Source of the DNA: Glaciihabitans sp. dw_435
GTDB lineage: Bacteria; Actinomycetota; Actinomycetes; Actinomycetales; Microbacteriaceae
Reading direction: 5' to 3'
Length of the DNA stretch: 64,000 nucleotides
Assembly (NCBI RefSeq): GCF_018449675.1
Contig: NZ_JAAVUZ010000001.1
Span: 434,001 to 498,000, forward strand
A program made the position numbers and the translations under genes. Positions 13,356-58,690 of the stretch are shown in pieces. The notes beneath the pieces were generated by a model. The model did not search any database. It had not been told where the DNA came from and saw only the letters and a program-made list of their open reading frames with translations. Position 1 is the stretch's first letter, and every line of letters starts with the position of its first letter.

Positions 13356-13357
13356 TC

Positions 13358-40595: not shown

Positions 40596-40701
40596 GCGAT
40601 TCCGCATCATTACGCGCGAATGACCATCGGAATCAGCAGGCGATGCGCCGTTGCCCCGCAGCATCGCGGACGAAGTGGGTGCCCGTAAAATACGTGATGA
40701 G

Positions 40702-40740
40702 TTACATCGGGGACTGAACTGCACCGACAATAGGACTGTG
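40702..40740 (+). promoter_or_regulatory. Possible promoter of the FHA/PP2C genes (leaderless)
   Basis: TTACAT (40702-40707), an 18-bp spacer and GACAAT (40726-40731) are followed after six bases by the GTG at 40738. The same GACAAT-N6-GTG layout precedes the AlkD-like gene at 419. Confidence 0.4.
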
Positions 40741-41292: not shown

Positions 41293-42086
41293 TGACCGAG
41301 ATCGGCACGAGTACCGCCGAGTTCACGGTCGCGCTTCCGGGGCATCCCGAATCTGTCGTTCGCCTGTCCTGGGCAGCGGCGACCGACGTCGGAAAGCGGC
41401 GCCGGGCGAACGAGGACAGCTATGTCGCCCGGTCACCCATGTTCGCCGTAGCCGACGGTATGGGCGGTCACGCCGCGGGGGACCTTGCCAGCGCCGCTGT
41501 TGTCACGCGCCTTGCAGAAATGACAACGACAGACTTTCTTTCGGCCGCCGCGGTGGACACGGCACTTGTCCGTGCCACGGAGGACATCGATGTCGTGAGC
41601 GTCGGTAACGACATGGGCGTCGGAACCACGGCGACGGGCGCGATCCTTGCCGTCGAGGGTGGCAAGCCATACTTCGGTGTCTTTAACGTCGGTGACAGCC
41701 GGGTCTATAGCTACACGCCGCACGAGCTGGTGCAGGTGACGACCGACCATTCGGTGGTGCAGGAGATGGTCGATTCCGGTCTGATCAGCAGGGCACAGGC
41801 GGAGATTCATCCGGACAGCAACATCATCACCCGTGCGGTGGGCTTCGGGGAAGCACCCGAGGTGGACTACTGGCTGGTGCCCATGCGGGCGGGACTTCGT
41901 TTGCTCATTTGCTCCGACGGGCTGACCAAGGAAGTGGACGACCACGGGCTCCTGGCGGAACTCGCCGCCGGCCACAGTGCGCTGGACACGGCCGCTGCCC
42001 TCGTGCAGGCGGCTCTCGATGCCGGAGGTCGCGACAACGTGACCACGATCATCGTCGACGTACTGTCGGTACCCGCCGAAAATTAG
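41292..42086 (+). CDS. PP2C-family Ser/Thr protein phosphatase
   Basis: This 264-residue PPM phosphatase has intact metal-binding motifs: RRRANEDSYVARSP, VADGMGGHAAGDLASA, VFNVGDSRVYSYT, TTDHSVVQEMVDSG, LLICSDGLTKEVDDHGL and GGRDNVTTIIVDV. It lacks the membrane segment and extracellular domain of PstP, so it is cytoplasmic. It should reverse phosphorylation by the kinase encoded next, acting on the two FHA proteins or on the kinase itself. The ATG shares one base with the upstream stop. Confidence 0.93.
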   Translation: MTEIGTSTAEFTVALPGHPESVVRLSWAAATDVGKRRRANEDSYVARSPMFAVADGMGGHAAGDLASAAVVTRLAEMTTTDFLSAAAVDTALVRATEDIDVVSVGNDMGVGTTATGAILAVEGGKPYFGVFNVGDSRVYSYTPHELVQVTTDHSVVQEMVDSGLISRAQAEIHPDSNIITRAVGFGEAPEVDYWLVPMRAGLRLLICSDGLTKEVDDHGLLAELAAGHSALDTAAALVQAALDAGGRDNVTTIIVDVLSVPAEN

Positions 42087-42145: not shown

Positions 42146-42188
42146 TACAATGGACAGATCTGTCGACTGGGCGAAGGGGTGGACCTTG
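42146..42188 (+). promoter_or_regulatory. -10 element and ribosome-binding site that decide the kinase start
   Basis: TACAAT (42146-42151) overlaps the first possible ATG (42150), so transcripts from it would begin at about 42158. They then carry GAAGGGG (42172-42179) in front of the TTG at 42186. This favours TTG 42186 as the start. No convincing -35 is seen. Confidence 0.4.
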
Positions 42189-43613: not shown

Positions 43614-46600
43614 GTGATTAGGACATGGATACGCCGCCACCGCTCGCTGTTCTTTACCGTGACCAGTGGAGTGGTTGTTGCGGCACTCATCGTCGTCGTC
43701 GCCGTGACGTCGACGGGGTTCACCGCGCAGAAACTTGACCTTGGCGACGCCGCCGTGTGGGTGTCGAACGGGTCCAAGCAGGCCGTCGGTCGGGCAAACA
43801 CCGAGGTGCTCGAGCTCAATTCGGTGGTGTCCGGAACCGGCAGCGACGTTGATGTTTTGCAGGGTGGGTCGACGGTGCTCGCCCTCGACCACGGCACGAG
43901 CAAGCTGGACATCATCGATCCGGCGACGTCGGCTATCTCTGACAGCGTCCCGCTGCCGCCGAGTCGTCCGCAGGTCTACCTGGCCGGTGACACAGCGGTC
44001 ATTCTCGCCCGCGGGACGGGGCAGCTGTGGATCACGCCGGTCAGCCAGCTCAGCACATTCGATGCGGAGGCGACGCCCACCCTGAGCCTTGGCGCCGACA
44101 CCATCGCGAGCATGGATGATGACGGTCGTATGTTCGTCTACTCACCGACCGCTGGTGCCGTCTACCGCATCGACCCGGAGGTTTCCGATGCGGTCCGGTC
44201 GACGGACAAGGTCACGATTCCGGCGACCGGCGATCTCAGCATCACCTCCGCGGGCGCACGCTGGGTCGTGCTGGACGCGACCGCCCGGCTGCTCTACACG
44301 GCCGATGGAACAGCGAGCGTCCCCGATCTGGCCGCGGCGGCGATCCTTCAGCAGCCCGGAGGGGATGCGACCCGGGTGCTCGTCGCAGACTCCACGGGGG
44401 TCTATTCCGCGGCCCTGCCGTCCCGCGTGGTCACCAAGATCGACACCGGGCGGTCGGGGACGGCCGCGGCCCCCCTTATCTCCGGCGGCTGCGTCTTCAC
44501 CGCATGGACGAGCGGCCAGGCTTGGCGGCAGTGCGCGAACGATCCGGCGGAGGGGTCCGTCCTCCCACTCTCCGCGATGCCCGCCAACGCGGAGCTTGGC
44601 TTCCACAGCAACGGCGACCGCGTGCTCCTCAATGACGGACTCGCGGGCGACTCGTGGGCGGTGCAGGCTTCGGGAGAGCTCATCAACAACTGGGCGGAGC
44701 TCATCCCGCCCGACGCAGACCAGTCGCAGCAAGACAATAACGAAGACACCCCTCCAGAGCAGGACAAGATCCAGCAGCCGCCGGTGGCAGTGGATGACTC
44801 GTTCGGAGCTCGCCCCGGGCGCGCAAGCGTGCTGCCCGTGCTGCTCAATGACTACGACCCCAACGGGGACGTGCTGGCCATCGACAGCGTCGGTGAGCTC
44901 GACGGCAGTTTCGGGCACATCGACCTGATCAACGACGGCCAACAGTTGCAGATCACTGTGACGGACGAGGCGTCGGGATCGGCGACGATCCGGTACACGA
45001 TCAGTGACGGGCGGGGTGGGACTGCGTCCGCCTCGGTGAAGGTGACCGTACGCACTCCCGCGCAGAACTCACCTCCGCAGCAGGTGCGATCGAGTACCGC
45101 GACGGTGGCGACCGGTGGACGGGTGACCACGCAGGTGCTGGGCGACTGGGTTGACCCCGACGGTGACGCGTTCTTCCTCAGCGCGGCATCCGCCCCCGCT
45201 CCCAATATTGTGACCTCGCGTCCGCAGGGGTCCGTGGTGTTCACGGACTCCGGTTCCGGGGCCGCGCTCAAGCAGGTGGCAATCGTTGTGTCGGATGGCT
45301 CGGCCGAGGGCACGGGAACCATCGCCATTACCGTGCGCGCCCAGGGCAAGGTTCCCATCGTCGCCGATCCCTTTATCGTGGTCGTCACCGCGAACTCCGA
45401 GGTGACGGTTCTCCCGCTCGAACACGTGCGGGGAGGAACCGGCGCGGTGCGGCTCAACAGCGTGCCCGCGCGCACGGGGTCGACAGTCACCCCCAGCTAC
45501 GAGGCGGGATCATTCCGCTTTACGAGTTCGCAGGTCGGCACCCACTACCTCGATTACGTGGTCACCGACGGTGACCTGTCGGCGACCGGCGTGGTGCGGG
45601 TAGAAGTCATCTCGCCTCCCGACGCCAACGCAAAGCCCGTCACCATTCCGAAGACGGTGTTTGTGCGGTCGCTGCAGACCGAGCGCGTGGACGTTGCCGG
45701 AACCGACATCGACCCGGCCGGAGGTGTCTTGCTCGTCACGGGAATCTCCGGTCTTCCCACCGCGTCCGGCGTCTCCACCGAGGTGCTCGAGCAGCGGTAT
45801 GTGCAGGTGCGGCTGAGCGCCCCGATCGACCAGCCGGTGACCTTCAACTACACCGTCAGCAACGGGCTCGCCGAGGCGCAGGGGATCATCACTGTCATCG
45901 AGATCGCCTCCCCGAGCCGGTTGCAGCCGCCCGTCGCCAACGATGACGAGATCACCGTGCGAGTCGGGGCGGCCATCGATATCCCGGTGCTCGACAATGA
46001 CGAGCACCCGGACGGCGAAGCGCTGACCCTGCTTCCCACCCTCGCCCGTGGTCTCCCTTCCGGCGCCGGTCTGCTCTTCGGCTCCGGCCGCGTGCTGCGC
46101 TACCTTGCCCCCGATCACACGGGCAACTTCACCGCCGTGTATCAGGTCGACGGCCCGGACGGCCAGAGCGCGCGGGCGCAGGTGCGCATCGCCGTGCGCG
46201 AGGCGGATGTCGCCACGAACAACGCTCCCGTGCCGTCGCCGATCGTCGCGCGGGCGCTCGCGGGGGAGACGGTGACCATCGCCGTCCCGCTGTCGGGCAT
46301 CGACCCCGACGGTGACTCTGTGCAACTCATCGGCCAGGCCACGAACCCGCAGAAGGGGTCGGTGGTGAGCGTCGATGCCGACTCGATCACCTACCGTGCC
46401 GGTGACTACTCCGTGGGAACGGACAGCTTCACGTACACGGTCGTCGACGCGCTCGGAGCGCGCGCGACCGGGACCGTCCGTGTCGGAATCACCGCGCGGG
46501 CGGATGGCGCCAGGAATCCCGTCGCGATCCTCGACGAGATCACCGTGCGTCCGGGGGTCACCGTCTCGGTGCAGGTGCTCGCCAACGATTCCGACCCCGA

Positions 46601-49600
46601 CGGCCGGCCGCTGCACGTCGTGAGCGTTGTTCCGAACGATCCGGTCACCCGCGCCTCGGTCGCCAACGAGCTGGTGTCGATCCGTCCACCTGACGTGCCG
46701 GGAACGTACGGTGTCGTCTACACGATTGACAACGGGTTCGGCGGGACGAGCTCGAACTTCGTCCGAGTGACCGTCGACCCGAATGCTCCTCTTGCCTTCC
46801 CGGTCGCGGGGGACACGGTGCTGACGCTCACCGACATCCTCGACCACCCGACCGTGGACGTCGCGGTGCTCGGCCACGTGTTCTTTGCCGACGGAAGTCC
46901 GTCCGCGCTCGGCGTGACCATCGATCCCGCTTACAGTTCGCGTGCGCAGGTGCTCGCCAACAAGCGCGTCCGGGTGACCGTGGAGAACGACAGCCAGATC
47001 ATCCCGTTCCGGGTCAGCCATCCCCAGGACCCCAACGTCTTCTCCTACGCCTTCATCTGGGTGCCCGGATTCCGGGATGCCCTGCCCCAGCTCAACCGCA
47101 ACGCGCCCGCCCTCACGGTCGCCAGCGAGGCGAAGCTCGTGATCCACCTCAATGATTACGTGCTCGCCGTCGGCGACAAGACGGTTCGGCTCACCGACGC
47201 CGGTTCGGTGACCGCCACGCACAGCAACGGAACCAACCTCGTCGTTGGGCCCGAGACCCTCACCTTCACCTCGGCGGACCGCTATTTCGGCGCAGCATCG
47301 ATCTCCTTCGAAGTGACGGACGGGGAATCAGCGGATGACCCGAATGGGCACACCGCGATTCTGGTGCTGCCCATCACGGTGTTGCCGCGTGAGAACCAGC
47401 CACCCACGTTTGCCGGCGCGGTGCTCGAGGTCGAGCCCGCGGAGTCGAAGCAGATCGACCTCGTGCGACTGACCAACTACCCCTACCCGGACGACACCGG
47501 CGAGCTGGTCTACACCGTCCTGAGCCCGCTTCCCGTCGGATTCACCTATGCCCTGTCCGGCCACCTCCTCACCCTGCGAGCCAACGAATCCGCCGCCACC
47601 GGCAGCATCACCAACATTTCCATCGGAGTGCGGGACAGCGCGTCGACCGGCCAGGCGGGACGCATCCAGCTCAACGTGGTGCCCTCGACGAAACCGCTGG
47701 CAACCGCGGCGACGGACGTGACCCAGGTGCGCCGGGGCGAGACATCCACCGTCGACGTCCTCGCCAACGACGCGGCGACCAACCCGTTCCCGGCGACGCC
47801 GCTGAGGGTCGTCGCGATCAGGGGAGTGGGAGGCAACCAGCTTCCCAAGGGCATCGCAGTCTCGCCCAGCCGCGACAAGAGCGAGCTCGCCGTGACGGTC
47901 GCCGCGTCCGCGAAGCCAGGCGAGACGGAACTTCAATATCAGATAGCGGATGCCACGGACGACCCCAACCGGTACGTGTGGGGCACCGTGCGCATCTCCG
48001 TGCAGGACAGGCCCGACCCGGTCTCCAATGTGCGGGTGGCGAGCTTCGCCGATCGGCAGCTCACCGTCGCCTGGAACAGTGGATCGTCGAACAACTCGCC
48101 GCTGACCGGGTACCACGTGGATCTCGCCGACCCGGCGACCGGCGCCGTGCTGGGAAGCGCCGACTGTGCCGGAGCGCAGTGTGAGGTCGCCACTCCGGGC
48201 AACGGACCGGACAACGCCGTGCGAATCGTGGTCGTCGCGAAGAATGCCGTGGGTGATTCCGACCCGGCGCAGAACGCCACCAACGTCTGGTCGGATGTGG
48301 TTCCGGATGCCCCCGCCAACGTGACCGCGACGCCGCTTGACCACGGCTTCCGCGTCCGCTGGGCCAAACCCGTCAACTCAGGCGGCGGTTCCGAGATCAC
48401 GAAGTACGTCCTTGACGTCGACGGTCTGCCGACGATCGAGGTGAGCGTGAACCCGCTGGACGCGCCCGGCACGCAGTACAGCCGCACCGTCACCGACCCC
48501 GGCATCGCGAACGGGTCGACCGTCGCGTTCAGCATCTCGTCGAGGAATTCGGCGGCGTCGACGCTCGCCTCGTGGAAGAAGGCAACCGGAGCGGCGCATC
48601 CGGCCGGCGATCCCGACCGCAAGGCCGCGCCGACCGCCTCCGCCGACATCGGCGAGGGAACGACCGCGACGCTCACCTGGCCGGGCGGATTCTCCGACGA
48701 CGGACGGCCGATCACCGAGTACTTCGCGGCGGTCTACACGAACGTCGCTCCGCTGTGCACGGTGGCGGGTGACCTCCCGGGACTGCCGCAGGTGGGTATC
48801 GCGAGTCCCGTGATCAAGCACGTGGGAACCGCGACGAGCACCACGTTCACGGGGCTGGCCCCGGACACACGCTACAAGTTTGTGGTGTTTGCCTTCAACG
48901 GTATGGGGTGCACCTCGAGCGTCGTCGTCGAAGCGACTCCCCGGGCACGGCCGGGCACCGTTACCTCGATTTCCACCCTGGCGGCGGACGGGTCATCCAC
49001 TCCCGAGCCGAACGGTGACTTCGCCTGGGATTACAAGCTGCGCTCGTTTACGACGACCACCATCGCCAGCCGCGCGTCCGACACGTTCATCTACAAGCTC
49101 AGCGGCGGGTCGATCGATGGCACGGAGCGCGGTCCGCGCACGCTGGGTTCCTTCCTCACGGCCGACGGCCAGCAGTATGGCGAGCGTGTGTCGGTGCAGG
49201 TCAAGGCCTGCCGTACGTATTCCGATGTCGGCACACCGCTGTGCAGCGCGAACTGGTCGGCGCCCTTCCCCGTGGGCGTGCCCGTGAGCAACAGCGCCCT
49301 CGGCGGACAGAACTTCACGCAGACTCCCGGCCAGGCCGTGCCGGCGCCGGACCCGACCGATCCCGCCGACCCGCCCGTCACGCCCGTGACGACGCCGGCG
49401 ACCGGCCAGTACAGCTGGACGTCTGCGCCTGCCGGCAACGGATACGATGCGGTGACCTATTCGTGCGGCGGTGGTGAGAGCGCGCTCGGGTCTGGCGCGG
49501 GCACGTGTGACGTGACCGAGTCGACGACGACGGATGACTCGGGCACGGCGGTTCCGACGGGCGACTTCCCCAGCCTCACCGTCACGATCACGGCCAACGG

Positions 49601-49646
49601 AACGCAGTATGTGAGAACGTACACATGGCAAAGCTTTCACTCGTAA
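43614..49646 (+). CDS. Giant surface protein: N-terminal anchor, propeller-like domain, tandem Ig-like repeats, Fn3 domains
   Basis: This 2010-residue protein is anchored by one N-terminal membrane helix (about 12-32). Residues 38-365 have the repeated hydrophobic/Gly pattern of a beta-propeller (LDIIDPATSAISDSVPLPPS, GAVYRIDPEVSDAVRS). An acidic/Gln spacer (about 366-385) leads to roughly ten cadherin-like/tandem Ig-like modules (about 390-1460) marked by DPDGD-type calcium-site-like motifs. Fn3 modules follow (about 1463-1780, PVSNVRVASFADRQLTVAWN, PDAPANVTATPLDHGFRVRW). A Pro/Thr-rich linker and a C-terminal domain with two cysteines close it. There is no LPXTG motif. It matches the fn3 gene of the PFNA cluster in position; the ligand is unknown. 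Confidence 0.9.
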   Translation: MIRTWIRRHRSLFFTVTSGVVVAALIVVVAVTSTGFTAQKLDLGDAAVWVSNGSKQAVGRANTEVLELNSVVSGTGSDVDVLQGGSTVLALDHGTSKLDIIDPATSAISDSVPLPPSRPQVYLAGDTAVILARGTGQLWITPVSQLSTFDAEATPTLSLGADTIASMDDDGRMFVYSPTAGAVYRIDPEVSDAVRSTDKVTIPATGDLSITSAGARWVVLDATARLLYTADGTASVPDLAAAAILQQPGGDATRVLVADSTGVYSAALPSRVVTKIDTGRSGTAAAPLISGGCVFTAWTSGQAWRQCANDPAEGSVLPLSAMPANAELGFHSNGDRVLLNDGLAGDSWAVQASGELINNWAELIPPDADQSQQDNNEDTPPEQDKIQQPPVAVDDSFGARPGRASVLPVLLNDYDPNGDVLAIDSVGELDGSFGHIDLINDGQQLQITVTDEASGSATIRYTISDGRGGTASASVKVTVRTPAQNSPPQQVRSSTATVATGGRVTTQVLGDWVDPDGDAFFLSAASAPAPNIVTSRPQGSVVFTDSGSGAALKQVAIVVSDGSAEGTGTIAITVRAQGKVPIVADPFIVVVTANSEVTVLPLEHVRGGTGAVRLNSVPARTGSTVTPSYEAGSFRFTSSQVGTHYLDYVVTDGDLSATGVVRVEVISPPDANAKPVTIPKTVFVRSLQTERVDVAGTDIDPAGGVLLVTGISGLPTASGVSTEVLEQRYVQVRLSAPIDQPVTFNYTVSNGLAEAQGIITVIEIASPSRLQPPVANDDEITVRVGAAIDIPVLDNDEHPDGEALTLLPTLARGLPSGAGLLFGSGRVLRYLAPDHTGNFTAVYQVDGPDGQSARAQVRIAVREADVATNNAPVPSPIVARALAGETVTIAVPLSGIDPDGDSVQLIGQATNPQKGSVVSVDADSITYRAGDYSVGTDSFTYTVVDALGARATGTVRVGITARADGARNPVAILDEITVRPGVTVSVQVLANDSDPDGRPLHVVSVVPNDPVTRASVANELVSIRPPDVPGTYGVVYTIDNGFGGTSSNFVRVTVDPNAPLAFPVAGDTVLTLTDILDHPTVDVAVLGHVFFADGSPSALGVTIDPAYSSRAQVLANKRVRVTVENDSQIIPFRVSHPQDPNVFSYAFIWVPGFRDALPQLNRNAPALTVASEAKLVIHLNDYVLAVGDKTVRLTDAGSVTATHSNGTNLVVGPETLTFTSADRYFGAASISFEVTDGESADDPNGHTAILVLPITVLPRENQPPTFAGAVLEVEPAESKQIDLVRLTNYPYPDDTGELVYTVLSPLPVGFTYALSGHLLTLRANESAATGSITNISIGVRDSASTGQAGRIQLNVVPSTKPLATAATDVTQVRRGETSTVDVLANDAATNPFPATPLRVVAIRGVGGNQLPKGIAVSPSRDKSELAVTVAASAKPGETELQYQIADATDDPNRYVWGTVRISVQDRPDPVSNVRVASFADRQLTVAWNSGSSNNSPLTGYHVDLADPATGAVLGSADCAGAQCEVATPGNGPDNAVRIVVVAKNAVGDSDPAQNATNVWSDVVPDAPANVTATPLDHGFRVRWAKPVNSGGGSEITKYVLDVDGLPTIEVSVNPLDAPGTQYSRTVTDPGIANGSTVAFSISSRNSAASTLASWKKATGAAHPAGDPDRKAAPTASADIGEGTTATLTWPGGFSDDGRPITEYFAAVYTNVAPLCTVAGDLPGLPQVGIASPVIKHVGTATSTTFTGLAPDTRYKFVVFAFNGMGCTSSVVVEATPRARPGTVTSISTLAADGSSTPEPNGDFAWDYKLRSFTTTTIASRASDTFIYKLSGGSIDGTERGPRTLGSFLTADGQQYGERVSVQVKACRTYSDVGTPLCSANWSAPFPVGVPVSNSALGGQNFTQTPGQAVPAPDPTDPADPPVTPVTTPATGQYSWTSAPAGNGYDAVTYSCGGGESALGSGAGTCDVTESTTTDDSGTAVPTGDFPSLTVTITANGTQYVRTYTWQSFHS

Positions 49647-49659
49647 TGGAGAACCAAGA

Positions 49660-50631
49660 ATGACCATGACACCCGAACAGGCCATCTGGTTCTCGGAGAC
49701 CTTCGCGCGTCTCGTCACGAACGTCGAGAAAGTGGTCATGGGGAAGACCTTTGTCATCCGACTCGGCTTCACCTCGCTGCTGAGCGGCGGGCACCTGCTG
49801 CTGGAGGATTTCCCCGGCACGGGAAAGACCTCCCTCGCGCGCGCCATGGCGCAGACGGTGCAGGGAACGAGCAGCCGGGTGCAGTTCACGCCCGACCTTC
49901 TGCCCGGCGACATCACCGGTGTCAGCATCTTCGATCAGCGCACCAACGACTTCGAGTTTCACCACGGGCCGATCTTCGCCAACATCGTGCTGGCCGACGA
50001 AATCAACAGGGCAAGCCCGAAGACCCAGGCGGCGTTGCTCGAGGTCATGGAGGAGGGACGGGTGACCGTTGACGGCGTCAGCCACGACGTGGGAAGCCCG
50101 TTCATGGTCATCGCGACCCAGAACCCCATTGAACAGGCGGGCACCTACCGGTTGCCCGAGGCGCAACTCGACCGTTTCCTCATGAAGACCTCGATCGGGT
50201 ACCCCGACCACGCGTCGACCCTTCGCATTCTCGAGGGAGCGGAGACGTCCGCCCACACCGTGACGCTGAACAGCATCGTCACCGCGGAGGTCGTGCTGAG
50301 CATGGCAGCGCTGGCCCGTACCGTGCACGTCGACCCGTCCATCAATGACTACATTTCCCGTCTCGTCGACGCGACCCGGTCGGCCGTCGAGGTCAGGCTC
50401 GGCGTGAGCGTGCGCGGAGCGCTGGCGCTCGTGCGGGCTTCCAAGACACTCGCCGCCGCCAACGGCCGCCACTACGTGATTCCGGATGACGTCAAGGCGC
50501 TGGCCGAACCCGTGCTCGCGCACCGGCTGGTGTTGGACCCCGAGGCCGAGTTCGAGGGTGTCACCACCTCCAGCATCATCGCCCAGATCCTCATCGAGAC
50601 TCCGCCACCGAGTGACAGGCAAGCCGTGTGA
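49660..50631 (+). CDS. MoxR-family AAA+ ATPase
   Basis: This 323-residue AAA+ ATPase has Walker A LEDFPGTGKTSLARAM (K56), Walker B FANIVLADEINRASPKTQAA (D113), a sensor-1 region VIATQNPIEQAGTYRLPEAQ and the C-terminal lid with HYVIPDDVKALAEPVLAHRL. MoxR proteins remodel or activate partner complexes, nearly always alongside DUF58 proteins, as here. It starts 13 bases after the giant gene, and its stop overlaps the DUF58 start by four bases. Confidence 0.95.
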   Translation: MTMTPEQAIWFSETFARLVTNVEKVVMGKTFVIRLGFTSLLSGGHLLLEDFPGTGKTSLARAMAQTVQGTSSRVQFTPDLLPGDITGVSIFDQRTNDFEFHHGPIFANIVLADEINRASPKTQAALLEVMEEGRVTVDGVSHDVGSPFMVIATQNPIEQAGTYRLPEAQLDRFLMKTSIGYPDHASTLRILEGAETSAHTVTLNSIVTAEVVLSMAALARTVHVDPSINDYISRLVDATRSAVEVRLGVSVRGALALVRASKTLAAANGRHYVIPDDVKALAEPVLAHRLVLDPEAEFEGVTTSSIIAQILIETPPPSDRQAV

Positions 50632-52058
50632 GCACGCGAACCGGTCGAACCACGTCGCGCTCCGTTGGCGCACGCTCGGTCACCGCACGTTCGACGCGGG
50701 CCGCCGACGCGTACTCGACGACCACAACCTCCGGACGCACGGATGGCCTGACGAATGCCCGTACCCGCATCGTCGGTACCCGGCAGGGACCGCTCGCCGA
50801 CTTCGTGATCGCCGTGGTCCGGGTCTCCGGTGCCGCGCTGGTCAGTCTTCACCGCGTGACGAGACGTGCGACAGCCGTTGTGACTCCCGTCGGATGGGCG
50901 GTACTGCTCGCGACCCCCCTCGCCTTCGTGTTCGGGTACGGGCTGGGCTGGACCGAGCTTGTCGTCACGGGGTGGGCGCTGAGCGGTGTCCTGGTTCTCG
51001 CTGCCCTGTACCTGATCGGCCGCACGACGCTGTCCGTTGAGTTGCGCCTGGTTTCCCACCGCGTCGTCGTCGGTGAGGGGGCCGGGGGTTCCCTTGTTGT
51101 TCGGAACTCCCGTCGGCGGCGGGTGTTTGGCAGCACCGTGGAAGTACCCATCGGTCAGGGCCTCGCAGAATTCCCGCTTCCGAGCCTCGCCCGCGAATCA
51201 CAGCTGGAGCGCGAGTTCATCCTGCCCACCGAGCGCCGGGGCATCGTGACGGTCGGGCCCGCGCGCACCGTGCGCGCCGATCCCATCGGGCTCGTCCGGC
51301 GTGAGCTTGTCTGGACGGACACGACCTCCCTCGTGGTGCACCCGCGCACGATCGCGATCCCCAGTACGACGACGGGATTCGTGCGCGACCTCGAGGGGAA
51401 CGCGACGAGGGACCTCACCAGCAGTGACATCGCTTTCCACGCGTTGCGTGAGTATCAGCCCGGAGACGAACGCCGAAACATCCACTGGAAATCGACGGCG
51501 AAGACCGGTCGCTACATGGTGAGGCAATTCGAAGAGACCCGCCGAAGCCACCTGGTGATCGCGCTGAGCCTTGCACGCACCGACTATGCGACCGACGACG
51601 AGTTTGAGCTGGCTGTCAGCGCTGCCGGATCCCTCGGTGCGCGCGCGATCGCCGATACCCGGGACGTGACAGTCGTCGTCAGCGAGGCGACGCCGGAGTT
51701 TGCCAAGCGCAAGGTGTTCGCCGTTCGTCCGCTGTCCACCCTGACGCGGGCGCGTCTGCTCGACGATCTCGCCGTGGTGCAGAGCGCGGATACCGCGCTG
51801 AGGATCGAGGATGTCGCGCACGTGACGGCAGACCTCGTGACCGGTGTCTCCGTGGCGTTCCTCGTCTGCGGTTCCGGTGCGACCGTCGGTCAGCTCCGGG
51901 CGGCCTCCACCCAGTTCTCTGCCGGTGTCGAAGTCGTCGCGATCGTGTGCGACCCGGACACGGTTCCCGGGCTGCGCAGGGTGGCCGGTCTCAGCGTGTT
52001 TACGATCGGTTCCCTCCAGGACCTCCAGAAGTCGCTGGCACGATCGGCGGCGGTATGA
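50628..52058 (+). CDS. DUF58-family membrane protein
   Basis: This 476-residue protein has a Ser/Thr/Arg-rich N-terminus of about 55 residues and two membrane helices (about 88-110 and 113-132). A beta-rich segment precedes the DUF58 signature (LREYQPGDERRNIHWKSTAK, TGRYMVRQFEETRRSHLVIA). The C-terminal part resembles a von Willebrand A-like fold with a conserved Asp region. DUF58 proteins are typical partners of MoxR ATPases. Its precise function is unknown. It overlaps both neighbours by four bases. Confidence 0.9.
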   Translation: MSTRTGRTTSRSVGARSVTARSTRAADAYSTTTTSGRTDGLTNARTRIVGTRQGPLADFVIAVVRVSGAALVSLHRVTRRATAVVTPVGWAVLLATPLAFVFGYGLGWTELVVTGWALSGVLVLAALYLIGRTTLSVELRLVSHRVVVGEGAGGSLVVRNSRRRRVFGSTVEVPIGQGLAEFPLPSLARESQLEREFILPTERRGIVTVGPARTVRADPIGLVRRELVWTDTTSLVVHPRTIAIPSTTTGFVRDLEGNATRDLTSSDIAFHALREYQPGDERRNIHWKSTAKTGRYMVRQFEETRRSHLVIALSLARTDYATDDEFELAVSAAGSLGARAIADTRDVTVVVSEATPEFAKRKVFAVRPLSTLTRARLLDDLAVVQSADTALRIEDVAHVTADLVTGVSVAFLVCGSGATVGQLRAASTQFSAGVEVVAIVCDPDTVPGLRRVAGLSVFTIGSLQDLQKSLARSAAV

Positions 52059-54334
52059 GAGCCGCTCGGCCCAGCGCCAGCTTCATCGTCCTCAACACGC
52101 TCGCCCTGTGGCTCGCGGTGGGAGTCGCCGCGTGCGCGCTCTGGCCGATTTACCGCACCCCACAGGTCGTGGTCGTGGTGGCGGTCACCGTCGTCGTCGC
52201 CTCGCTCATTGCGATTCTCGGGGCGGTCTTCCGCTGGTCGGCACCCATCGTGGCCGGAGCAACCCTGCTCGCCTACTTCGCGTTCGGGGTACCGCTGGCG
52301 GTACCGTCGCAGGCCACGAGCGGTATCGTTCCCACGCTGACGGGTCTGCGCGAGCTGATCCTCGGGGCTGCGTTCGGGTGGAAACAGCTGCTGACCATTT
52401 CGCTGCCGGTGGGAAGTTACGAGTCGTTGCTGGTGCCGTTTTACCTGCTGATTCTGGTGGTGACGGTCGTCGCGGCATCCGTCGCCCTCCGCTCCCGCCA
52501 TGGCGACCTTGCGGTGCTTGGCCCGATCGCCCTGTACGTGATTGCCCTCGTGTTCGGCGGCGAGACTCCGTTCTTGCCCGTGGTGCTGCCGCTCGCCCTG
52601 CTGTCGGTGACGCTGCTCTGGATCAGTTGGCGACGCTGGTACCGACGGCACGTCAGCATCCGCAGCCTGACGACCAAGCAGGATTCCGAGCGCACCAGCG
52701 CCGACAGCAGGTTCACCGGGGTTCGTGCGGGGATCGCTGCGACGGTGCTGCTCGCGATCGCCGCGGGGGCCGCCGTCGTGGTGGTTGCTGCCCTGCCCCC
52801 GGCAAGTGCGCGTGAGGTGCTCCGCGCGGCGACGGTGCAGCCGTTCGACCCGCGGGATTCCACGAGTCCGCTCGCAGCTTTCCGCACGTACTGGCAGGAG
52901 CCGACCGTCGACGACGTGCTGCTCACGGTGCGGGGACTGCCAAAGGGCGCACGGCTGAAGCTCGCCACGCTCGACAGTTACAACGGCGTCGTGTACTCGG
53001 TGGGAAGTTCGGTTGTCGACAGCGCGTCGGGCTCCTTCACCCGTCTGCCGTTCGAACTCGATCAGAGCGCCGTGCGGGGAACGCCCGCGACGCTCACGGT
53101 CGACGTCGGCGACTACGCGGGGATGTGGGTGCCGAGTGCCGGAGCGCTTGAGCGCTTCGCGGTGACCGGGGGAGCGGATGCCACGGAACTGCGCAATTCG
53201 TTCTACTACAACACCACCACGGGGTCGGCGGTCGTCCTGGACGGCCTCGCCGCCGGCGACAGCTACTCGATCGATACGGTTCTGCCGGATCAGCCCACGG
53301 TTGCGCAGTACCCCACCCTGCAGGCGGGGACGGCGCAGGTTCCGCCGCTCGGCGCTGTGCCGGCGGAACTCAACTCCGTTCTCGCGTCCTATGTGGCCGG
53401 CGTCAAGGGCCAGGGAAACCAGCTGGTGGCAATGCTCGCCGGGTTGGCCCGCGATGGGTACGTCAGCCACGGGGTGGGCGCGGACGCCGTACCGAGCCGA
53501 TCCGGTCACTCCATCGACCGCATCAGCGAGTTGCTGACCGACCAGCGAATGATCGGCGACGCCGAACAGTTCTCGGTGACGGCCGCGCTGATGGCTCGGC
53601 AGCTGGGGTTCCCTGCCCGTGTCGTCATGGGATTCGTGCCCGAATCATCCGCCGACGTGCAGCAGGTGCGTGGGCGGGACGTGTCCGCCTGGGTGGAGGT
53701 CGATACCCGGGAGTACGGATGGGTCGCCATCGACCCCAACCCTGCGGTGCGCGACATCCCGGCAGAGCAGCCGCAGGACCCGACCCGCATCTCCCGTCCA
53801 CAGAGCGTTGTGCCGCCGGTGGTCTCGGACCCCGCGCCCGTCGACCGCCAGACGACGCCGGACAGCGAACAGAACGACCCCGCCACGACGGACCCGGTGC
53901 TCGCGATAATCCTCGCCGTCGCTCGTGTCGTCGGGTGGGTTGCCGTGGGCGTCGCCGTGCTGATGGCCCCGTTCCTCGTCGTGATTGCGGCAAAGGTGCG
54001 CCGTCGGCGCAGGCGTCGCCGCGCGACATCCACTCTCGACAGAATTCGTGGCGGGTGGAGCGAGTTCGAGGACAGCGTGCTCGATCACGGATTTGACCCG
54101 CCGGCGACCGCGACCCGCAGTGAGGTGGCCGCCGTTGTCGGTGGGACGCAGCCGTTCGTGCTCGCGGCGGTGGCGGACCGTGCCGTGTTCTCTCCGTCCG
54201 AACCGGACGTGGCCGAGGCCGACCTCGTGTGGACGTCGGTTCGCGAGCTCACCGCCTCGCTGAACTCCGGCAAGACGCGGTGGCAGCGGCTGCGGGCGCG
54301 CATCTCGCTGCGCTCCATGGGCCGACGGATATAG
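52055..54334 (+). CDS. Transglutaminase-fold membrane protein with altered catalytic triad
   Basis: This 759-residue protein has about five N-terminal membrane helices (about 10-185) and one more near 232-255. A large extracytoplasmic region leads to a transglutaminase-like core (about 460-565). A C-terminal helix (about 620-645) and a basic cytoplasmic tail with DUF4129-like features close it. Where active enzymes have a Cys, this reads GDAEQF (Ala503), and where they have a His it reads DVSAWVEV (Ser544). Only the Asp remains (Asp560 in VAIDPNP). It is therefore probably a scaffold or binding protein, not a crosslinking enzyme. It corresponds to tgm of the PFNA cluster. Confidence 0.88.
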   Translation: MRAARPSASFIVLNTLALWLAVGVAACALWPIYRTPQVVVVVAVTVVVASLIAILGAVFRWSAPIVAGATLLAYFAFGVPLAVPSQATSGIVPTLTGLRELILGAAFGWKQLLTISLPVGSYESLLVPFYLLILVVTVVAASVALRSRHGDLAVLGPIALYVIALVFGGETPFLPVVLPLALLSVTLLWISWRRWYRRHVSIRSLTTKQDSERTSADSRFTGVRAGIAATVLLAIAAGAAVVVVAALPPASAREVLRAATVQPFDPRDSTSPLAAFRTYWQEPTVDDVLLTVRGLPKGARLKLATLDSYNGVVYSVGSSVVDSASGSFTRLPFELDQSAVRGTPATLTVDVGDYAGMWVPSAGALERFAVTGGADATELRNSFYYNTTTGSAVVLDGLAAGDSYSIDTVLPDQPTVAQYPTLQAGTAQVPPLGAVPAELNSVLASYVAGVKGQGNQLVAMLAGLARDGYVSHGVGADAVPSRSGHSIDRISELLTDQRMIGDAEQFSVTAALMARQLGFPARVVMGFVPESSADVQQVRGRDVSAWVEVDTREYGWVAIDPNPAVRDIPAEQPQDPTRISRPQSVVPPVVSDPAPVDRQTTPDSEQNDPATTDPVLAIILAVARVVGWVAVGVAVLMAPFLVVIAAKVRRRRRRRRATSTLDRIRGGWSEFEDSVLDHGFDPPATATRSEVAAVVGGTQPFVLAAVADRAVFSPSEPDVAEADLVWTSVRELTASLNSGKTRWQRLRARISLRSMGRRI

Positions 54335-54372
54335 TTGACGAAGGCTTTAGAACTGCGAGAGGGTTTCACGCC

Positions 54373-55470
54373 ATGACCTGTACCTCGTGCGGAGCCGAGC
54401 TTCCCGCTGGCGCCATGTTCTGCGGCGAATGCGGTCGCTCCGTCAGTGCGCGGGATGCCGCGGCGGCAGCTCCCCGCTGCGAGCAGTGCAACGCCGTGCT
54501 GGGCAAGGCCGACATCTTCTGCGGCGTGTGCGGATTCGTGGTGCGGTCGGCGCTCACCATGCCAGGGCCGCGGGACACTGTTGCCCTCAACCGGGACGAG
54601 CTGATCGCCGGATTCGCCAGCCTCGATGAGCAGCACGTGACGCCGGTGTCGACGTCGTCTGTTCCCGTGGTGACGCCCCGAGCGGACCCCGCGCCCGTCC
54701 GCGTCCCGACGCCCGAGCCGACACCCGGGCCAACGAATGCGCCGACGAATGCGCTCACGAGTGCGCCGTCCGCGTCCGCGGCGCGCCCCGTGCCGTCGCC
54801 GCCGCCGGGTGCAATTCGGCGTGGTGTCCAGCTTCCGCCGGCGTCGCCCGCTCCGATTGTCTCCGAGCCGGTGTCCGCAGTGCCGCCGTTTTCCACCGCT
54901 GTTCCCGCGGCCGACTCCGCTGTGCCCGTCGCGCCTCCCGTGTCCGCGGTGCCCCCGATCTCGACAGCCCCGCCCGTCTCTGCGGCGCCCCCGATCTCGA
55001 CCGCGTCGCCCGCGCCCTCGACTTCCCCCGCGCCTCGTCCGGCGTCGCCGGCTCAGCCTCCCGCCGCGGTGAGCGACCTGGACCTCGATGATCTCGACGT
55101 CGACGACCTCGAGAAGACCCGCATCGTGCGTCGCTCCGACCGGGGCGAGCGGTTCGTGCTCCAGTTCAGCACCGGCGAGAGCTTCACGGTCTACGGCTCG
55201 GGACTTCTCGGCCGCAACCCGCGCCCACAGCCCAGCGAGTTTTTCGACAACCTCATCGTCATTTCCGACCCGGGCAAGTCAGTCTCGAAGACCCACCTCG
55301 AGTTCGGCCAGGAGGCGGGAGCGTTCTGGGTCTGCGACAGGTTCTCCGGCAACGGTTCCGTCGCCCGGGAACCCGAACAGCAAGCCAGACGCCTGGACGC
55401 AGGCAAGCGCTACCGCATCGCCCGTGGAACCCGAATCGACATCGGCGAACAGTTCCTCATCGTCAGCTGA
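54373..55470 (+). CDS. Zinc-ribbon and FHA-domain protein
   Basis: This 365-residue protein starts with two zinc ribbons (CTSCGAELPAGAMFCGECG and CEQCNAVLGKADIFCGVCG). It continues with a long Pro/Ala/Ser/Thr linker (about 90-235) that includes repeats of PVSAVPPIST, and ends with an FHA domain (about 250-365: LLGRNPRP, SVSKTHLEF, GNGSV). Just before the FHA domain DLEKTRIVRR resembles the regulatory Thr of GarA-type proteins, so binding may switch between trans partners and its own phosphothreonine. It precedes the EccC-like ATPase by 90 bp. EssC-type motors of firmicutes carry FHA domains in the same chain, so a partnership is plausible. Confidence 0.88.
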   Translation: MTCTSCGAELPAGAMFCGECGRSVSARDAAAAAPRCEQCNAVLGKADIFCGVCGFVVRSALTMPGPRDTVALNRDELIAGFASLDEQHVTPVSTSSVPVVTPRADPAPVRVPTPEPTPGPTNAPTNALTSAPSASAARPVPSPPPGAIRRGVQLPPASPAPIVSEPVSAVPPFSTAVPAADSAVPVAPPVSAVPPISTAPPVSAAPPISTASPAPSTSPAPRPASPAQPPAAVSDLDLDDLDVDDLEKTRIVRRSDRGERFVLQFSTGESFTVYGSGLLGRNPRPQPSEFFDNLIVISDPGKSVSKTHLEFGQEAGAFWVCDRFSGNGSVAREPEQQARRLDAGKRYRIARGTRIDIGEQFLIVS

Positions 55471-55560
55471 CCGCTCCTCCCCACCCGTGTCTCAGCCCCG
55501 GCTGTGCACGCTTCTCCGAGTTCCGTGCCACGACGGCTACCCGGGTGATTTCATCGGATC

Positions 55561-58551
55561 GTGTCATCCGCCGTTTCGGTCCCGCCCCAGCCACCCAGCG
55601 GTTCGCCGCGCCCATCGCGCCTGGCCCTGCCGCGACCACCGGAGACCCCGCGAGCGCACCCATTTCCGATGCTGGCGACCCTGGCGCCCGTCGCGGCGTC
55701 TGTCGGCCTCTGGCTGCTGACGTCCTCACCGTATGCACTGCTGTTCGCCGTGCTTGGTCCCGTCATCGCCATTGCCAGCGTCGGTGACTCGCGGCTCGAC
55801 TCCCGAAGGGTACGCAAGAAAGAACGCGCCCGATTCGATAGGGACTACGAACGCACCCGTCAGCTCATCGCCTCCATGCACCGCAGCGAGTCAGCGGGGC
55901 TGGCGAGGCTTGCGCCGTCCGCACGGTCGCTCATCGACGCTCCCGATCACGATCCCGAGAGGTGGCGTGCAGATCTCACACGACCTGTCCCCATTCGGCT
56001 GGGAACGGGCAGGGTTCACAGTGCACTGGAGGTGGACACGGATGCCCCGGGGCAGGTGTCGCCCTCGGTCGAGGCGCGCCTCACGGAGCTCCGCGAGGAG
56101 GCACGCTTTCTGCCAGCCGCTCCCATTGTGACGGACGCGCGACTCGGAGTCGGGTGTGTCGGGCCTCCGACCATCGCTGCTGCTGCCGCCCGGGCAATCG
56201 CGGTGCAGGTGGTGGCGGCCCTGCCACCCGACCGGGTCGGCGTTGCCGTTCCCGACGGCCAAAGTGCCTGGCGCTGTCTCGACGGGATTCCGCACCGGAT
56301 CGTGCGACGGGAGGCGTCGGACGGGTGCGACGCCATCGTCCTGTCGCCCGGGGGCGTCCCTCCCGAGGTGGTCATCGCCGTGGCGCCCACCCTGGAGGCA
56401 CTGCCACGCTCGACCCGCGTCGTCGTCGCGGTCGGCGGTTCCGGCGCGGAGGTTGTGCGGCATCCCGACGCAGACGCGATCGGACCGGTCGAGGTCGAGT
56501 TCGTCACCGCGGAAGACGTTGCAGGCTGGGCGGCGCGCATCGCCCGGCGCGCAGCTATCGACGGAGTGGGTCCGCAACACACCCGGATTCCGGCGAGCGC
56601 TGACCTGGAGCCGTTGCTGCGCGAACCCAGCGATGGAGGCCGGGGGCTTGAGTGCGACATCGGCATCGGTGACGCGGGAATGGTCGCCGTGGATCTGGTT
56701 GCCGACGGACCCCACGCCATCGTCGGCGGCACGACCGGGAGCGGAAAGAGCGAGCTGCTGATCAGCTGGGTCCTTGCCATGGCCGCGGGCAGGGCACCCA
56801 CCGAGGTCAGCTTCCTGTTCGTCGACTTCAAGGGCGGCGCCTCCTTCGATCCTCTCGAGTCGCTCCCGCACTGCGTCGGCGTCATCACCGACCTCGACAC
56901 GACCGAGGCCCTCCGGGCGCTGACCAGCCTGCGGGCAGAGGTGCGGCGCAGGGAAAAACTGCTTGCGGCAGTTCGGGCGCGATCGTTGGACGATATGCCG
57001 CACGCCGATGCGTTCGCCCGGCTGGTCATCGTGGTGGACGAATACGCCGCCGTGGTCGACGAATATCCCGACCTGCACGCCCTCTTCACCGACCTCGCCG
57101 CGCGGGGGCGGTCCCTCGGGATTCACCTGGTGCTGTGTACGCAGCGCCCCGGGGGAATCGTTCGGGACGGAATCCTGGCGAACAGCGGCCTGCGAATCTC
57201 GCTGCGCGTCACCAGCGCCGCTGACAGCACCATGATCATCGGAACGGATGACGCTGCAGCGCTTCCCCCGGATGTGCCGGGCCGCGCGCTGATCGCTACC
57301 TCCGGCACTTCACCCCGTGCGGTCCAGGTCGCACGGGCCGCGGCGGCGGACATCGCTGCCGTGGCCGGACGGTGGGCGTCCGCCGAGCGAGCGCGGCGGC
57401 CGTGGTGTGAACCCCTGCCCGTGATACTGACGCCGGGCGAGTTTGCTTCTGTCGTGGCATCCCGCGCCGTCGACGGCAGCATTCCTTTCGGTCTGGCGGA
57501 CCTCCCCGACGAGCAGCGTCGGGTGGTCGCGCACTACACGCCGACCGTCCACGGCAACCTCGCCGTGATCGGGGGCGCCGGATCCGGCAAGACCCGCTTT
57601 CTCGACGCACTGGGTCGTGCGCCTTCCTCCGCCACGGTCGTCCCTGTCGCCGGCGACCTCGCGTCCATCTGGGACGCCGTGACGGGCGCGCTTACCGAGC
57701 CGGACCCCGGGCACGTTCTCTTACTTGATGACGTGGACGCCGTGGTCTCGTCCTGCCCGGATGACTACGCCGCGGGGCTCATCGACAGGATCACGCGACT
57801 GCTCCGCGAGGGGCCAGGGGTGGGTGTTCACACGGTGGTGACGATGCAGCGTGTTCCCGGGAGCCTGCACGGCCTCGTCGCCCTCTGTGGCCAAACGCTC
57901 TTGCTACGCATGCCGAACCGGCAGGAGCATCTTCTCGCGGGAGGCGACACGCAGAGCTGGGCACCGGACCTGCCGCCCGGCGCCGGCTGGTGGCGAACAA
58001 CGCGGGTGCAGATCGTTGCGGGGGAGACGCCGCCGCCCGCGCGCGTTTCCGCCCGTTCGTGGACAGTGGATGTCGCGACCGACCCGAGCGCGACAGTGAT
58101 CGTTTCCTCGCGGGCCGCTGCGCTCGCCGGGGAGCTCCGCACCACCCTCCCGTCACGCGCGGTTACAGAGTTGACGTCCGCAGCGCAGGACCCGCGGGCA
58201 CTTCTTGTGTCCCGGGGGGATCCGCTTCCGTCGGTGCTGGTGGGGGATCCCTCTCAGTGGCAGGCGCACTGGGGAGCAATCGGCGAACTTCGAAGCAGCA
58301 TGAGCGTGATTTTCGACGGATGTTCCGTGGCGGACTTTCGCACGCTGACGGGCCTGCGGGAACCCCCGCCTCCGCCGTTATCCGGCGAGAGGGCCGGCTG
58401 GCGCGTGACGCCGGACGGAAACGTGCAGCGCGTCACACTCGAACTGGCCACGGAAGGGAGGCCGCCCAGCGGGCCACGCCACCGGGCGCGGCGCATCCCC
58501 GTTCATCCGGAACCCCTAACCATTGATTCCGCAGGAATATGCGTCGGTTAG
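55561..58551 (+). CDS. FtsK/SpoIIIE-family ATPase, EccC-like
   Basis: This 996-residue protein has a Pro-rich N-terminus, two membrane helices (about 38-72) and at least two ATPase domains. The first has Walker A GTTGSGKS (K396) and Walker B VIVVDEYA (D493). The second has GGAGSGKT (K677) and VLLLDDVDA (D723). The segment SEVSFLFVDFKGGASFD-like VSFLFVDFKGGASFDPLESL and LVLCTQRPGGIVRDGILANS are typical of EccC/EssC type VII secretion ATPases. It lacks the third ATPase of EccC. No WXG100 substrate, EccB, EccD or EccE gene is present in the window. The GTG at 55561 is the first usable start. Confidence 0.9.
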   Translation: MSSAVSVPPQPPSGSPRPSRLALPRPPETPRAHPFPMLATLAPVAASVGLWLLTSSPYALLFAVLGPVIAIASVGDSRLDSRRVRKKERARFDRDYERTRQLIASMHRSESAGLARLAPSARSLIDAPDHDPERWRADLTRPVPIRLGTGRVHSALEVDTDAPGQVSPSVEARLTELREEARFLPAAPIVTDARLGVGCVGPPTIAAAAARAIAVQVVAALPPDRVGVAVPDGQSAWRCLDGIPHRIVRREASDGCDAIVLSPGGVPPEVVIAVAPTLEALPRSTRVVVAVGGSGAEVVRHPDADAIGPVEVEFVTAEDVAGWAARIARRAAIDGVGPQHTRIPASADLEPLLREPSDGGRGLECDIGIGDAGMVAVDLVADGPHAIVGGTTGSGKSELLISWVLAMAAGRAPTEVSFLFVDFKGGASFDPLESLPHCVGVITDLDTTEALRALTSLRAEVRRREKLLAAVRARSLDDMPHADAFARLVIVVDEYAAVVDEYPDLHALFTDLAARGRSLGIHLVLCTQRPGGIVRDGILANSGLRISLRVTSAADSTMIIGTDDAAALPPDVPGRALIATSGTSPRAVQVARAAAADIAAVAGRWASAERARRPWCEPLPVILTPGEFASVVASRAVDGSIPFGLADLPDEQRRVVAHYTPTVHGNLAVIGGAGSGKTRFLDALGRAPSSATVVPVAGDLASIWDAVTGALTEPDPGHVLLLDDVDAVVSSCPDDYAAGLIDRITRLLREGPGVGVHTVVTMQRVPGSLHGLVALCGQTLLLRMPNRQEHLLAGGDTQSWAPDLPPGAGWWRTTRVQIVAGETPPPARVSARSWTVDVATDPSATVIVSSRAAALAGELRTTLPSRAVTELTSAAQDPRALLVSRGDPLPSVLVGDPSQWQAHWGAIGELRSSMSVIFDGCSVADFRTLTGLREPPPPPLSGERAGWRVTPDGNVQRVTLELATEGRPPSGPRHRARRIPVHPEPLTIDSAGICVG

Positions 58552-58690
58552 TGCTGATTTCGTGAAATTCTTGTTACATCATAGGCGAACTGCTCACTAT
58601 TTTCGTGTCAGTCGCCCCGCCTGTGCCAGTATCGAGCAACGAGTTTCGTCCCCAGTGACCAAAGATCACTTCCGGTGAAGGAGATGCCTC

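What the first reader, a model, noticed from the sequence alone, without database searches (positions are those of the whole stretch)
54373..58551. Separate zinc-ribbon/FHA protein next to a two-ATPase EccC-like motor, without WXG100 genes
EssC motors combine FHA domains with membrane helices and three ATPases. Here FHA and motor are separate genes and the motor has two clear ATPase domains. No WXG100 or other Ecc/Ess gene is in the window. It may be a reduced type VII-like export system, with the Ig/Fn3 protein or an unknown product as substrate.
Basis: partly seen in the sequence, partly recalled or inferred. Interest (0 to 1): 0.62.

Follow-up and report, generated by a model that had tools for sequence, protein, structure and literature searches.

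The report
Short type VII motor, distant partner
An actinobacterium carries a shortened version of the type VII secretion motor beside a phosphate-reading FHA protein, and across its family this motor is kept almost only together with one small secreted-type protein encoded far away, which suggests a split, phosphorylation-controlled secretion system.

Summary
54373-55470 encodes a double zinc-ribbon/FHA protein. 55561-58551 encodes a 996-aa EssC/EccC-family motor: membrane stalk, D0, D1, D2 and a P-loop-free remnant where D3 would be. They end a co-directional nine-gene cluster: FHA, PP2C, kinase, Ig/Fn3, MoxR, DUF58, transglutaminase, ZnR-FHA, motor. Its core has the order of the Bifidobacterium PFNA operon. 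In other actinobacterial families these genes lie beside a full FHA-EssC and WXG100 genes, so this looks like a reduced T7SSd-like locus, not a DNA translocase. The genome has a second EssC+WXG100 locus and a second PFNA set without a motor.

'Without WXG100 genes' is true of the locus, not of the genome. One unlinked WXG100 gene, mostly beside a histidine kinase gene and with a YxxxD/E tail, occurs in 111 of 112 short-motor genomes of the family and in 7 of 48 others. Both were lost together repeatedly on an RpoB tree. Of 13 genomes with full EssC but no short motor, none has it. The PFNA gene tgm shows no such link.

My reading: a split, phospho-regulated T7SS-like exporter with a WXG100 partner encoded in trans. 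Fn3 is more likely an envelope part than the substrate. Export itself is untested.

The parts
54373..55470 (+). ZnR-FHA protein (365 aa): double zinc ribbon 3-54, disordered Pro-rich linker, FHA about 260-365
55561..58551 (+). Short EssC/EccC-family motor (996 aa): membrane stalk about 37-117, D0 about 144-334, D1 about 364-604, D2 about 625-840, P-loop-free remnant about 843-961
40651..41292 (+). FHA-domain protein (213 aa as ORF from TTG; true start uncertain)
41292..42086 (+). PP2C-type Ser/Thr phosphatase
42150..43604 (+). Membrane Ser/Thr protein kinase (in the place of Pkb2 of the PFNA operon)
   Evidence: TM segment and Fn3-like tail by sequence reading
43614..49646 (+). 2010-aa Ig/tandem-95/Fn3 protein with N-terminal membrane anchor
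   Evidence: anchor by sequence reading
49660..50631 (+). MoxR-family AAA ATPase
50628..52058 (+). DUF58 protein
52055..54334 (+). Membrane transglutaminase-like protein (TgpA_N + Transglut_core); ORF open from 51947, ATG at 52055 overlaps the DUF58 stop (start by sequence reading)

Best explanation
The two genes are the motor end of a reduced, T7SSd-like (PFNA-type) type VII secretion locus. Shown by computation: the motor is an EssC/EccC relative with membrane stalk, D0, D1 and D2. The FHA domain that EssC carries fused sits in separate proteins. Kinase, phosphatase, Ig/Fn3, MoxR, DUF58 and transglutaminase genes form one cluster with it. An unlinked WXG100 with a YxxxD/E tail (G000:C11:4473-4760, behind a histidine kinase gene) is kept almost exactly where the short motor is kept. 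Inferred: the kinase and PP2C set the phosphorylation of a partner read by the FHA proteins, which gates assembly of the motor at the membrane; the motor, driven mainly by D1, engages that WXG100 protein in trans and exports it, alone or with cargo; Ig/Fn3 forms or lines the envelope passage; MoxR-DUF58-transglutaminase helps assemble or modify it. Because the D3 pocket that binds WXG100 tails in EccC is missing, recognition must use D2, the remnant or another protein.
For: Family scores EssC > EccC >> FtsK. D1 tree: short motors one group (82/99, not a starred branch) inside the EssC set, FtsK apart (100/100). AlphaFold model pLDDT 87; VIA Z 35.1 to T. curvata EccC (344-965, 601 aligned, 6.7 A), and 14/15-337 to EccC5/EccC3 stalk-DUF, Z 16.2-16.5. 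PFNA genes found upstream of a full EssC in 5 of 23 named EssC loci: Lentzea, Dactylosporangium, Propioniciclava, Aeromicrobium, Dietzia; and in 11 unnamed loci chosen because searches put tgm and EssC close together (L140-L145, L147-L151), 8 of the 11 with a WXG100-like ORF in the stretch. Of 10 such small proteins tested, 9 match PF06013 at E<=0.0014, 4 above cut-off. Unlinked WXG100: 111 of 112 motor genomes, 7 of 48 without; genomes >=90% complete 102 of 102 against 4 of 43; the 124 genomes outside the 36 where the idea arose 90 of 91 against 6 of 33. Full EssC but no short motor: 0 of 13, two weak hits counted as absent; short motor as the only motor hit: 7 of 7. Dependent against independent loss: likelihood ratio 44.5 (130 genomes) and 68.6 (123 genomes). 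tgm against motor: 17 of 21 and 13 of 15, p 1.0. YxxxD/E and WxG in 21 of 21 distinct genes looked at (the 20 best plus that of G015), histidine kinase ORF beside it in 18 of 21. FHA pThr-site residues invariant.
Against: No export was observed, and no physical motor-WXG100 contact was tested. The WXG100 persists without a motor hit in 7 of 48 genomes, among them three near-complete genomes of one genus (G015, G159, G220) and G130 (97% complete), so it may have another role. On strongly supported branches only, the independent-pairs test does not reach significance: 5 pairs differing in WXG100, on average 4.8 concordant, 0 discordant, median p 0.0625; 7 pairs differing in motor, 4.4 concordant, 2.6 without difference, median p 0.125. 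Some fitted rates sit at their bounds and the two fits disagree on which gene is lost first. D3 is missing, so the known WXG100 docking site is absent. D2 Walker A is not conserved (22 of 35). In 5 of 16 fetched relatives' loci the motor is not next to the ZnR-FHA/Fn3 cluster. The D1 tree does not place the short clade inside the PFNA-EssC clade, so 'derived from' that locus rests on gene content. Homology of Ig/Fn3 to TsdI was not tested.
Confidence: 0.55

Rival explanations
1. The short motor is no longer a secretion motor: with kinase, PP2C and FHA proteins it is a phospho-regulated membrane ATPase that remodels the envelope or the Ig/Fn3 protein. The WXG100 is then an intracellular or accessory partner.
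For: Longer end branches in the short clade than among PFNA-type EssC (by eye); D3 gone and D2 decaying; second context PP2C(-FHA)-motor without Fn3 beside it; WXG100 outlives the motor in some genomes.
Against: D1 Walker A Lys and Walker B Asp-Glu are invariant in 35 of 35; membrane stalk and D0 are kept; the retained partner bears the T7 export motif.
Confidence: 0.22
2. Two independent things: the unlinked WXG100 is exported by the rpoC-linked EssC system, and the co-occurrence with the short motor reflects shared ancestry of the genomes.
For: The genome has that EssC with its own WXG100 neighbour. Both traits cluster on the RpoB tree, and the pairs test on strong branches is not significant.
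Against: 0 of 13 genomes with EssC and no short motor keep the gene; 7 of 7 whose only motor hit is the short one keep it. The likelihood test takes the tree into account. tgm shows no such link.
Confidence: 0.1
3. A remnant on the way out: the locus is decaying and has no present function.
For: Truncated forms of 1024, 711 and 318-338 aa (D1 only) in small genomes. In some genomes the PFNA cluster stands without a motor.
Against: Open frames with invariant D1 residues in 35 aligned motors; 112 of 160 family genomes keep a motor; three species of one genus keep a D1-only form.
Confidence: 0.08
4. A DNA translocase of the FtsK kind.
For: PF01580 FtsK_SpoIIIE match; D1 alone also fits the FtsK motor structurally (Z about 30).
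Against: EssC model 233.9 bits against 60.9 for FtsK; tree; EccC-type stalk and D0; a separate FtsK-like protein on C6 groups with an annotated FtsK.
Confidence: 0.03

Closest known systems
T7SSd of Actinomycetota (Garrett, Higginson, Palmer 2024, PMC11217815; abstract, sections 7 and 9 and passages seen)
   Same: EssC-family membrane motor, Ser/Thr kinase, FHA with a conserved pThr site, large Ig-like membrane-anchored protein; phosphatase and extra FHA protein as in the sister type T7SSe.
   Different: Motor lacks the fused FHA and an intact D3; no WXG100 gene in the cluster; MoxR, DUF58 and transglutaminase genes present (the paper's main text has 0 occurrences of MoxR or transglutaminase).
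PFNA operon of Bifidobacterium (pkb2-fn3-aaa-atp-duf58-tgm, then prpC, hyp, fha; PMC8430577 and PMC6803598, passages seen)
   Same: Same five core gene kinds in the same order, plus phosphatase and FHA genes.
   Different: Here FHA and PP2C come first, a ZnR-FHA gene follows tgm, and a T7-type motor closes the cluster. The passages name no motor and call the cluster unique to bifidobacteria, though they note that the MoxR-DUF58-transglutaminase trio is common elsewhere.
EccC/EssC secretion ATPases (4nh0, 7b9f, 4lya)
   Same: Stalk, D0, D1 and D2 by fold and sequence.
   Different: In the place of D3 a stretch of about 120 aa without P-loop; D2 Walker-A Lys not conserved.
EssC + WXG100 locus between rpoC and rpsL in the same genome (L040)
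   Same: Same motor superfamily; EssC model matched over 213-1504 of 1508 aa, adjacent WXG100.
   Different: 1508 aa, FHA fused, own WXG100 next door, no PFNA genes next door.

Membership tests
T7SS in general (EccC/EssC motor + WXG100) | EccC/EssC-type membrane ATPase | tested here: met
   below NCBIfam equivalog cut-offs
T7SS in general (EccC/EssC motor + WXG100) | WXG100 gene in the locus | tested here: not met
   in 17 motor genomes the nearest same-contig WXG100 above cut-off is 196 kb away, though many lie on other contigs of draft genomes
T7SS in general (EccC/EssC motor + WXG100) | WXG100 partner anywhere, tied to the motor | tested here: met
   by co-occurrence only; the pairs test on strong branches is not significant; physical link untested
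T7SS in general (EccC/EssC motor + WXG100) | Motor-dependent secretion | not testable with these tools
   needs a secretome
T7SSd | TsdC with fused FHA and the full set of C-terminal NTPase domains | tested here: not met
   no FHA in the motor, no third P-loop
T7SSd | Membrane Ser/Thr kinase TsdD | tested here: met
   PF00069 140 bits; orthology to TsdD not tested
T7SSd | Large Ig-like envelope protein TsdI | tested here: inconclusive
   2010-aa Ig/Fn3 protein; sequence relation to TsdI not tested
T7SSd | TsdH small TM protein | not tested
   -
T7SSa (ESX) | EccB, EccD, EccE, mycosin | not tested
   no family search for these; the own-genome search with the motor found only the short motor, the C49 EssC and the FtsK-like C6 protein
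PFNA operon | Order kinase-fn3-MoxR-DUF58-tgm | tested here: met
   family level only, Bifidobacterium sequences not compared
FtsK/SpoIIIE DNA translocase | ATPase phylogeny with FtsK | tested here: not met
   the two FtsK rows apart at 100/100
FHA domain | FHA fold and pThr-site residues (G-R, SxxH, N-G; motif recalled) | tested here: met
   Pfam score just under cut-off

The most novel reading that the evidence does not exclude
A split type VII secretion system. A D3-less motor, switched by a kinase/PP2C/FHA module, exports a WXG100 protein encoded in an unlinked two-component-system operon. The machine can be pared down to a D1-only ATPase of 318-338 aa (three species of one genus, 1.3-1.4 Mb genomes) and still be kept together with that WXG100 gene. 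If so, neither D3 nor cis-encoded WXG100 is needed for T7 export.
Probability: 0.3. Interest if true: 0.75.

Novelty: new variant of a known kind. Interest (0 to 1): 0.6.

Why it matters
It links two things described apart, the bifidobacterial PFNA operon (read as host-cytokine sensing) and the kinase/Ig-type T7SSd, and shows this gene set in Microbacteriaceae and other actinobacteria, which makes host sensing less likely to be the primary function. It gives a natural motor without the D3 docking pocket and a WXG100 candidate partner found by co-loss, so the question of which parts of EccC/EssC are needed to recognise substrates becomes testable in harmless bacteria.

Tried and rejected
Considered and rejected: a DNA translocase; a hidden WXG100 between the genes (gaps 90 and 139 bp; no PF06013 hit in C1); Ig/Fn3 as substrate; the short motor as a stand-in for a lost EssC (both coexist in this genome). 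Rfam at gathering threshold found nothing in 40000-60000; no sigma-70-like promoter or terminator-like site in 54200-58800. The independent-pairs test on strongly supported branches did not reach significance.

Limits: motor calls for the 160 genomes were read by me from the listings. The listing behind the 96 clear calls came before the WXG100 search, but I wrote the classification down after it. The other 16 (small or divergent) were looked up after it (42 chosen genomes). Counting those 16 as motor-negative gives 95 of 96 against 23 of 64. One search did not list all its matches, so full-EssC status is known to me only for the 36 genomes and those. RpoB sequences were fetched for 130 of 160, motor-negative genomes first. 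The 36 genomes in which the idea arose are inside the 160; the other 124 were tallied alone. Weak WXG100 hits in G006, G151 and G019 (1e-7 to 1e-8) were counted as absent. The D1 tree's bootstrap had not settled. The WXG100 profile was iterated on its own hits; ten of its proteins were checked with Pfam and one (L147) matched nothing. Window queries at a fixed E-value may miss diverged neighbours.

Literature: in the listings I saw no title or abstract start that joins MoxR/DUF58/transglutaminase with a type VII motor; PMC8191103 (prophages of Mycobacterium chelonae, listing only) holds the words MoxR, DUF58, type VII and WXG100 and was not read. The library is open-access PMC only. Rosenberg 2015 was not read; its D3-binding result is taken from passages of PMC6954902. 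OdhI/GarA-like phospho-switching is recalled. Names rpoB, rpoC, rpsL and atp genes are by sequence reading. That the window's family is Microbacteriaceae is inferred from named relatives.
Full report
What is there. The two reported genes are real and adjacent. [quoted passage not shown] The FHA score is a hair under Pfam's cut-off, but the model of residues 259-365 matches solved FHA domains (best Z 14.2, 91 residues aligned, 1.6 A), and the phosphothreonine-site residues are invariant in the 21 aligned rows. 55561-58551 encodes a 996-aa motor. Its best curated model is EssC (233.9 bits), then EccCa and EccCb; FtsK scores 60.9; all are under the cut-offs. The AlphaFold model (35 sequences, mean pLDDT 87, pTM 0.70) has a membrane hairpin with a long stalk helix, a D0 domain that fits the EccC5/EccC3 stalk-DUF region (Z 16.2-16.5), D1 and D2 that fit T. 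curvata EccC (Z 35.1 over 601 residues, 6.7 A), and a C-terminal stretch of about 843-961 without a P-loop where D3 would be. The D1 Walker-A Lys is kept in 35 of 35 aligned motors, the D2 Lys in 22 of 35.

The cluster. The genes are the last two of a co-directional set on the + strand: FHA protein, PP2C, Ser/Thr kinase, 2010-aa Ig/Fn3 protein, MoxR, DUF58, transglutaminase, ZnR-FHA, motor. The core order kinase-fn3-MoxR-DUF58-tgm is that of the PFNA operon of Bifidobacterium, which in some species also carries a phosphatase and an FHA gene (PMC8430577, PMC6803598; passages seen).

Relatives. Among 59 relatives, 55 have a hit to the motor at 1e-20, EssC and other kin included; I count window-type motors in 21 of the 36 family genomes after looking at truncated forms. 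In 16 relatives' loci fetched around the motor, 11 have ZnR-FHA directly before it (9 of them with MoxR-DUF58-tgm upstream, 8 of these with an Fn3 hit too; 2 cut by contig ends), 4 have PP2C before it instead (one with FHA), and 1 has neither. Of 80 named loci, 57 carry a motor that matches the window's better than the EssC query, nearly all Microbacteriaceae by title, and 23 carry an EssC-type motor. In 5 of those 23 (Lentzea, Dactylosporangium, Propioniciclava, Aeromicrobium, Dietzia) PFNA genes were found upstream of the EssC. In 6 of them the run is tgm-ZnR/FHA-PP2C-FHA-kinase-EssC (L140, L144, L145, L149, L150, L151), in five others a shorter or turned form (L141, L142, L143, L147, L148). 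8 of these 11 have a WXG100-like ORF in the stretch. Of 10 such small proteins from named and unnamed loci, 9 match PF06013 at E<=0.0014, 4 of them above cut-off, and one (L147) matches nothing. So the window's cluster has the gene content of a T7SSd-like locus (PMC11217815, sections read), minus the fused FHA, D3 and WXG100. The D1 tree puts the short motors in one group (82/99; bootstrap not settled) within the EssC-type set, apart from FtsK (100/100), but not inside the PFNA-EssC group, so the line of descent is not settled.

The rest of the genome. A second, 1508-aa EssC with FHA and an adjacent WXG100 sits between rpoC and rpsL (neighbours named by sequence reading). A second PFNA set (PP2C-FHA-kinase-Fn3-MoxR-DUF58-tgm), without motor, ZnR-FHA or WXG100 hit beside it, is on contig C48. 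A third locus holds a lone WXG100 right behind a response regulator and a histidine kinase gene (G000:C11); it passes the curated WXG100 cut-offs (60.1 bits Pfam; 62.3 bits NCBIfam). In 17 motor genomes none of 44 WXG100 genes above cut-off lies nearer than 196 kb to the motor on the same contig; many are on other contigs.

A partner in trans. Across 36 family genomes the lone WXG100 type is in 21 of 21 with a short motor and 1 of 15 without. It is in 0 of 13 that have a full EssC but no short motor (weak hits in G006 and G019 counted as absent), and in 7 of 7 whose only motor hit is the short one. In 160 family genomes it is in 111 of 112 with and 7 of 48 without (Fisher 1e-29); at >=90% completeness in 102 of 102 and 4 of 43; in the 124 genomes outside the first 36 in 90 of 91 and 6 of 33. 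On an RpoB tree of 130 genomes the motor needs 12 changes and the WXG100 gene 10, mostly on the same branches by eye. A dependent model beats an independent one by a likelihood ratio of 44.5 (p 5e-9), or 68.6 without low-completeness genomes (123 genomes). Some rates lie at their bounds and the two fits disagree on which gene goes first. On strongly supported branches alone the pairs test is not significant: 5 pairs that differ in WXG100 (4.8 concordant on average, none discordant, median p 0.0625) and 7 that differ in motor (4.4 concordant, 2.6 without difference, median p 0.125). As a contrast, tgm shows no association with the motor (17 of 21 against 13 of 15, p 1.0). The WXG100 has W-x-G and Y-x-x-x-D/E in 21 of 21 distinct genes examined, the 20 best and that of G015, and a histidine kinase ORF beside it in 18 of 21. 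Against this, three near-complete genomes of one genus, G130 and three incomplete ones keep it with no motor hit, so it may do something else as well.

Mechanism. Shown: motor family, domain make-up, FHA competence by conservation, cluster, and co-loss with an unlinked WXG100. Inferred: kinase and PP2C set a phospho-mark read by the FHA proteins; this gates the membrane motor, which threads or releases the WXG100 protein, driven chiefly by D1; the Ig/Fn3 protein, anchored in the membrane, forms the envelope part, as proposed for TsdI; MoxR-DUF58-transglutaminase assists assembly. In EccC the WXG100 tail docks in the D3 pocket (PMC6954902, passages); with D3 gone, recognition must lie elsewhere. 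A motor without Fn3 or tgm (G018) and Fn3 clusters without motor (G005, G006, G030, G033) speak against Fn3 as the main cargo.

Verdict. I rate it a new variant of a known kind. The trans WXG100 link is the part most worth a bench test.

Noticed in passing
G012:C1:447516 (L191:9226-10182); G156:C1:407492; G217:C1:384571: In three species of one small-genome genus (1.3-1.4 Mb) the motor is reduced to a D1-only ORF of 318-338 aa. In G012 it sits just before potD/potA with Lrp and aminotransferase genes upstream, as in the window, with no hit to the other cluster genes in the stretch.
   Followed up: partly
L165 (G000:C48:60000-79900), 4323-18723: Second PFNA set in the same genome, PP2C-FHA-kinase-Fn3-MoxR-DUF58-tgm, with no motor or WXG100 hit beside it; perhaps it serves the rpoC-linked EssC.
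   Followed up: partly
L040:9895-16218 (G000:C49): EssC (1508 aa), WXG100 and a DUF5684-FHA protein between rpoC and rpsL (neighbours by sequence reading).
   Followed up: partly
L046, L049, L050, L054, L056: Second motor context: DUF4192 (checked in L050 and L054) and/or PP2C (one with FHA) before the motor, with ATP synthase genes in the stretch by sequence reading and no Fn3/MoxR/DUF58/tgm run next to it.
   Followed up: partly
L196:8872-11820, L197:7581-11420, L194:8113-10095, L195:8521-10389: Short-type or intermediate motors (623-1280 aa) in other families of the order that score higher with the short-motor profile than with the single EssC query.
   Followed up: no
window 54373-55470, just before the FHA domain (about residues 245-256): A D-x-E-x-T-R-I-V-like stretch, present by eye in 14 of 21 aligned rows, placed like the phospho-switch Thr of OdhI/GarA (recalled).
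   Followed up: no
G000:C11:1902-4763 (L057): Response regulator, histidine kinase and WXG100 genes in a row, 33 bp between kinase and WXG100; the same trio in G015, which has no motor hit (L198).
   Followed up: partly
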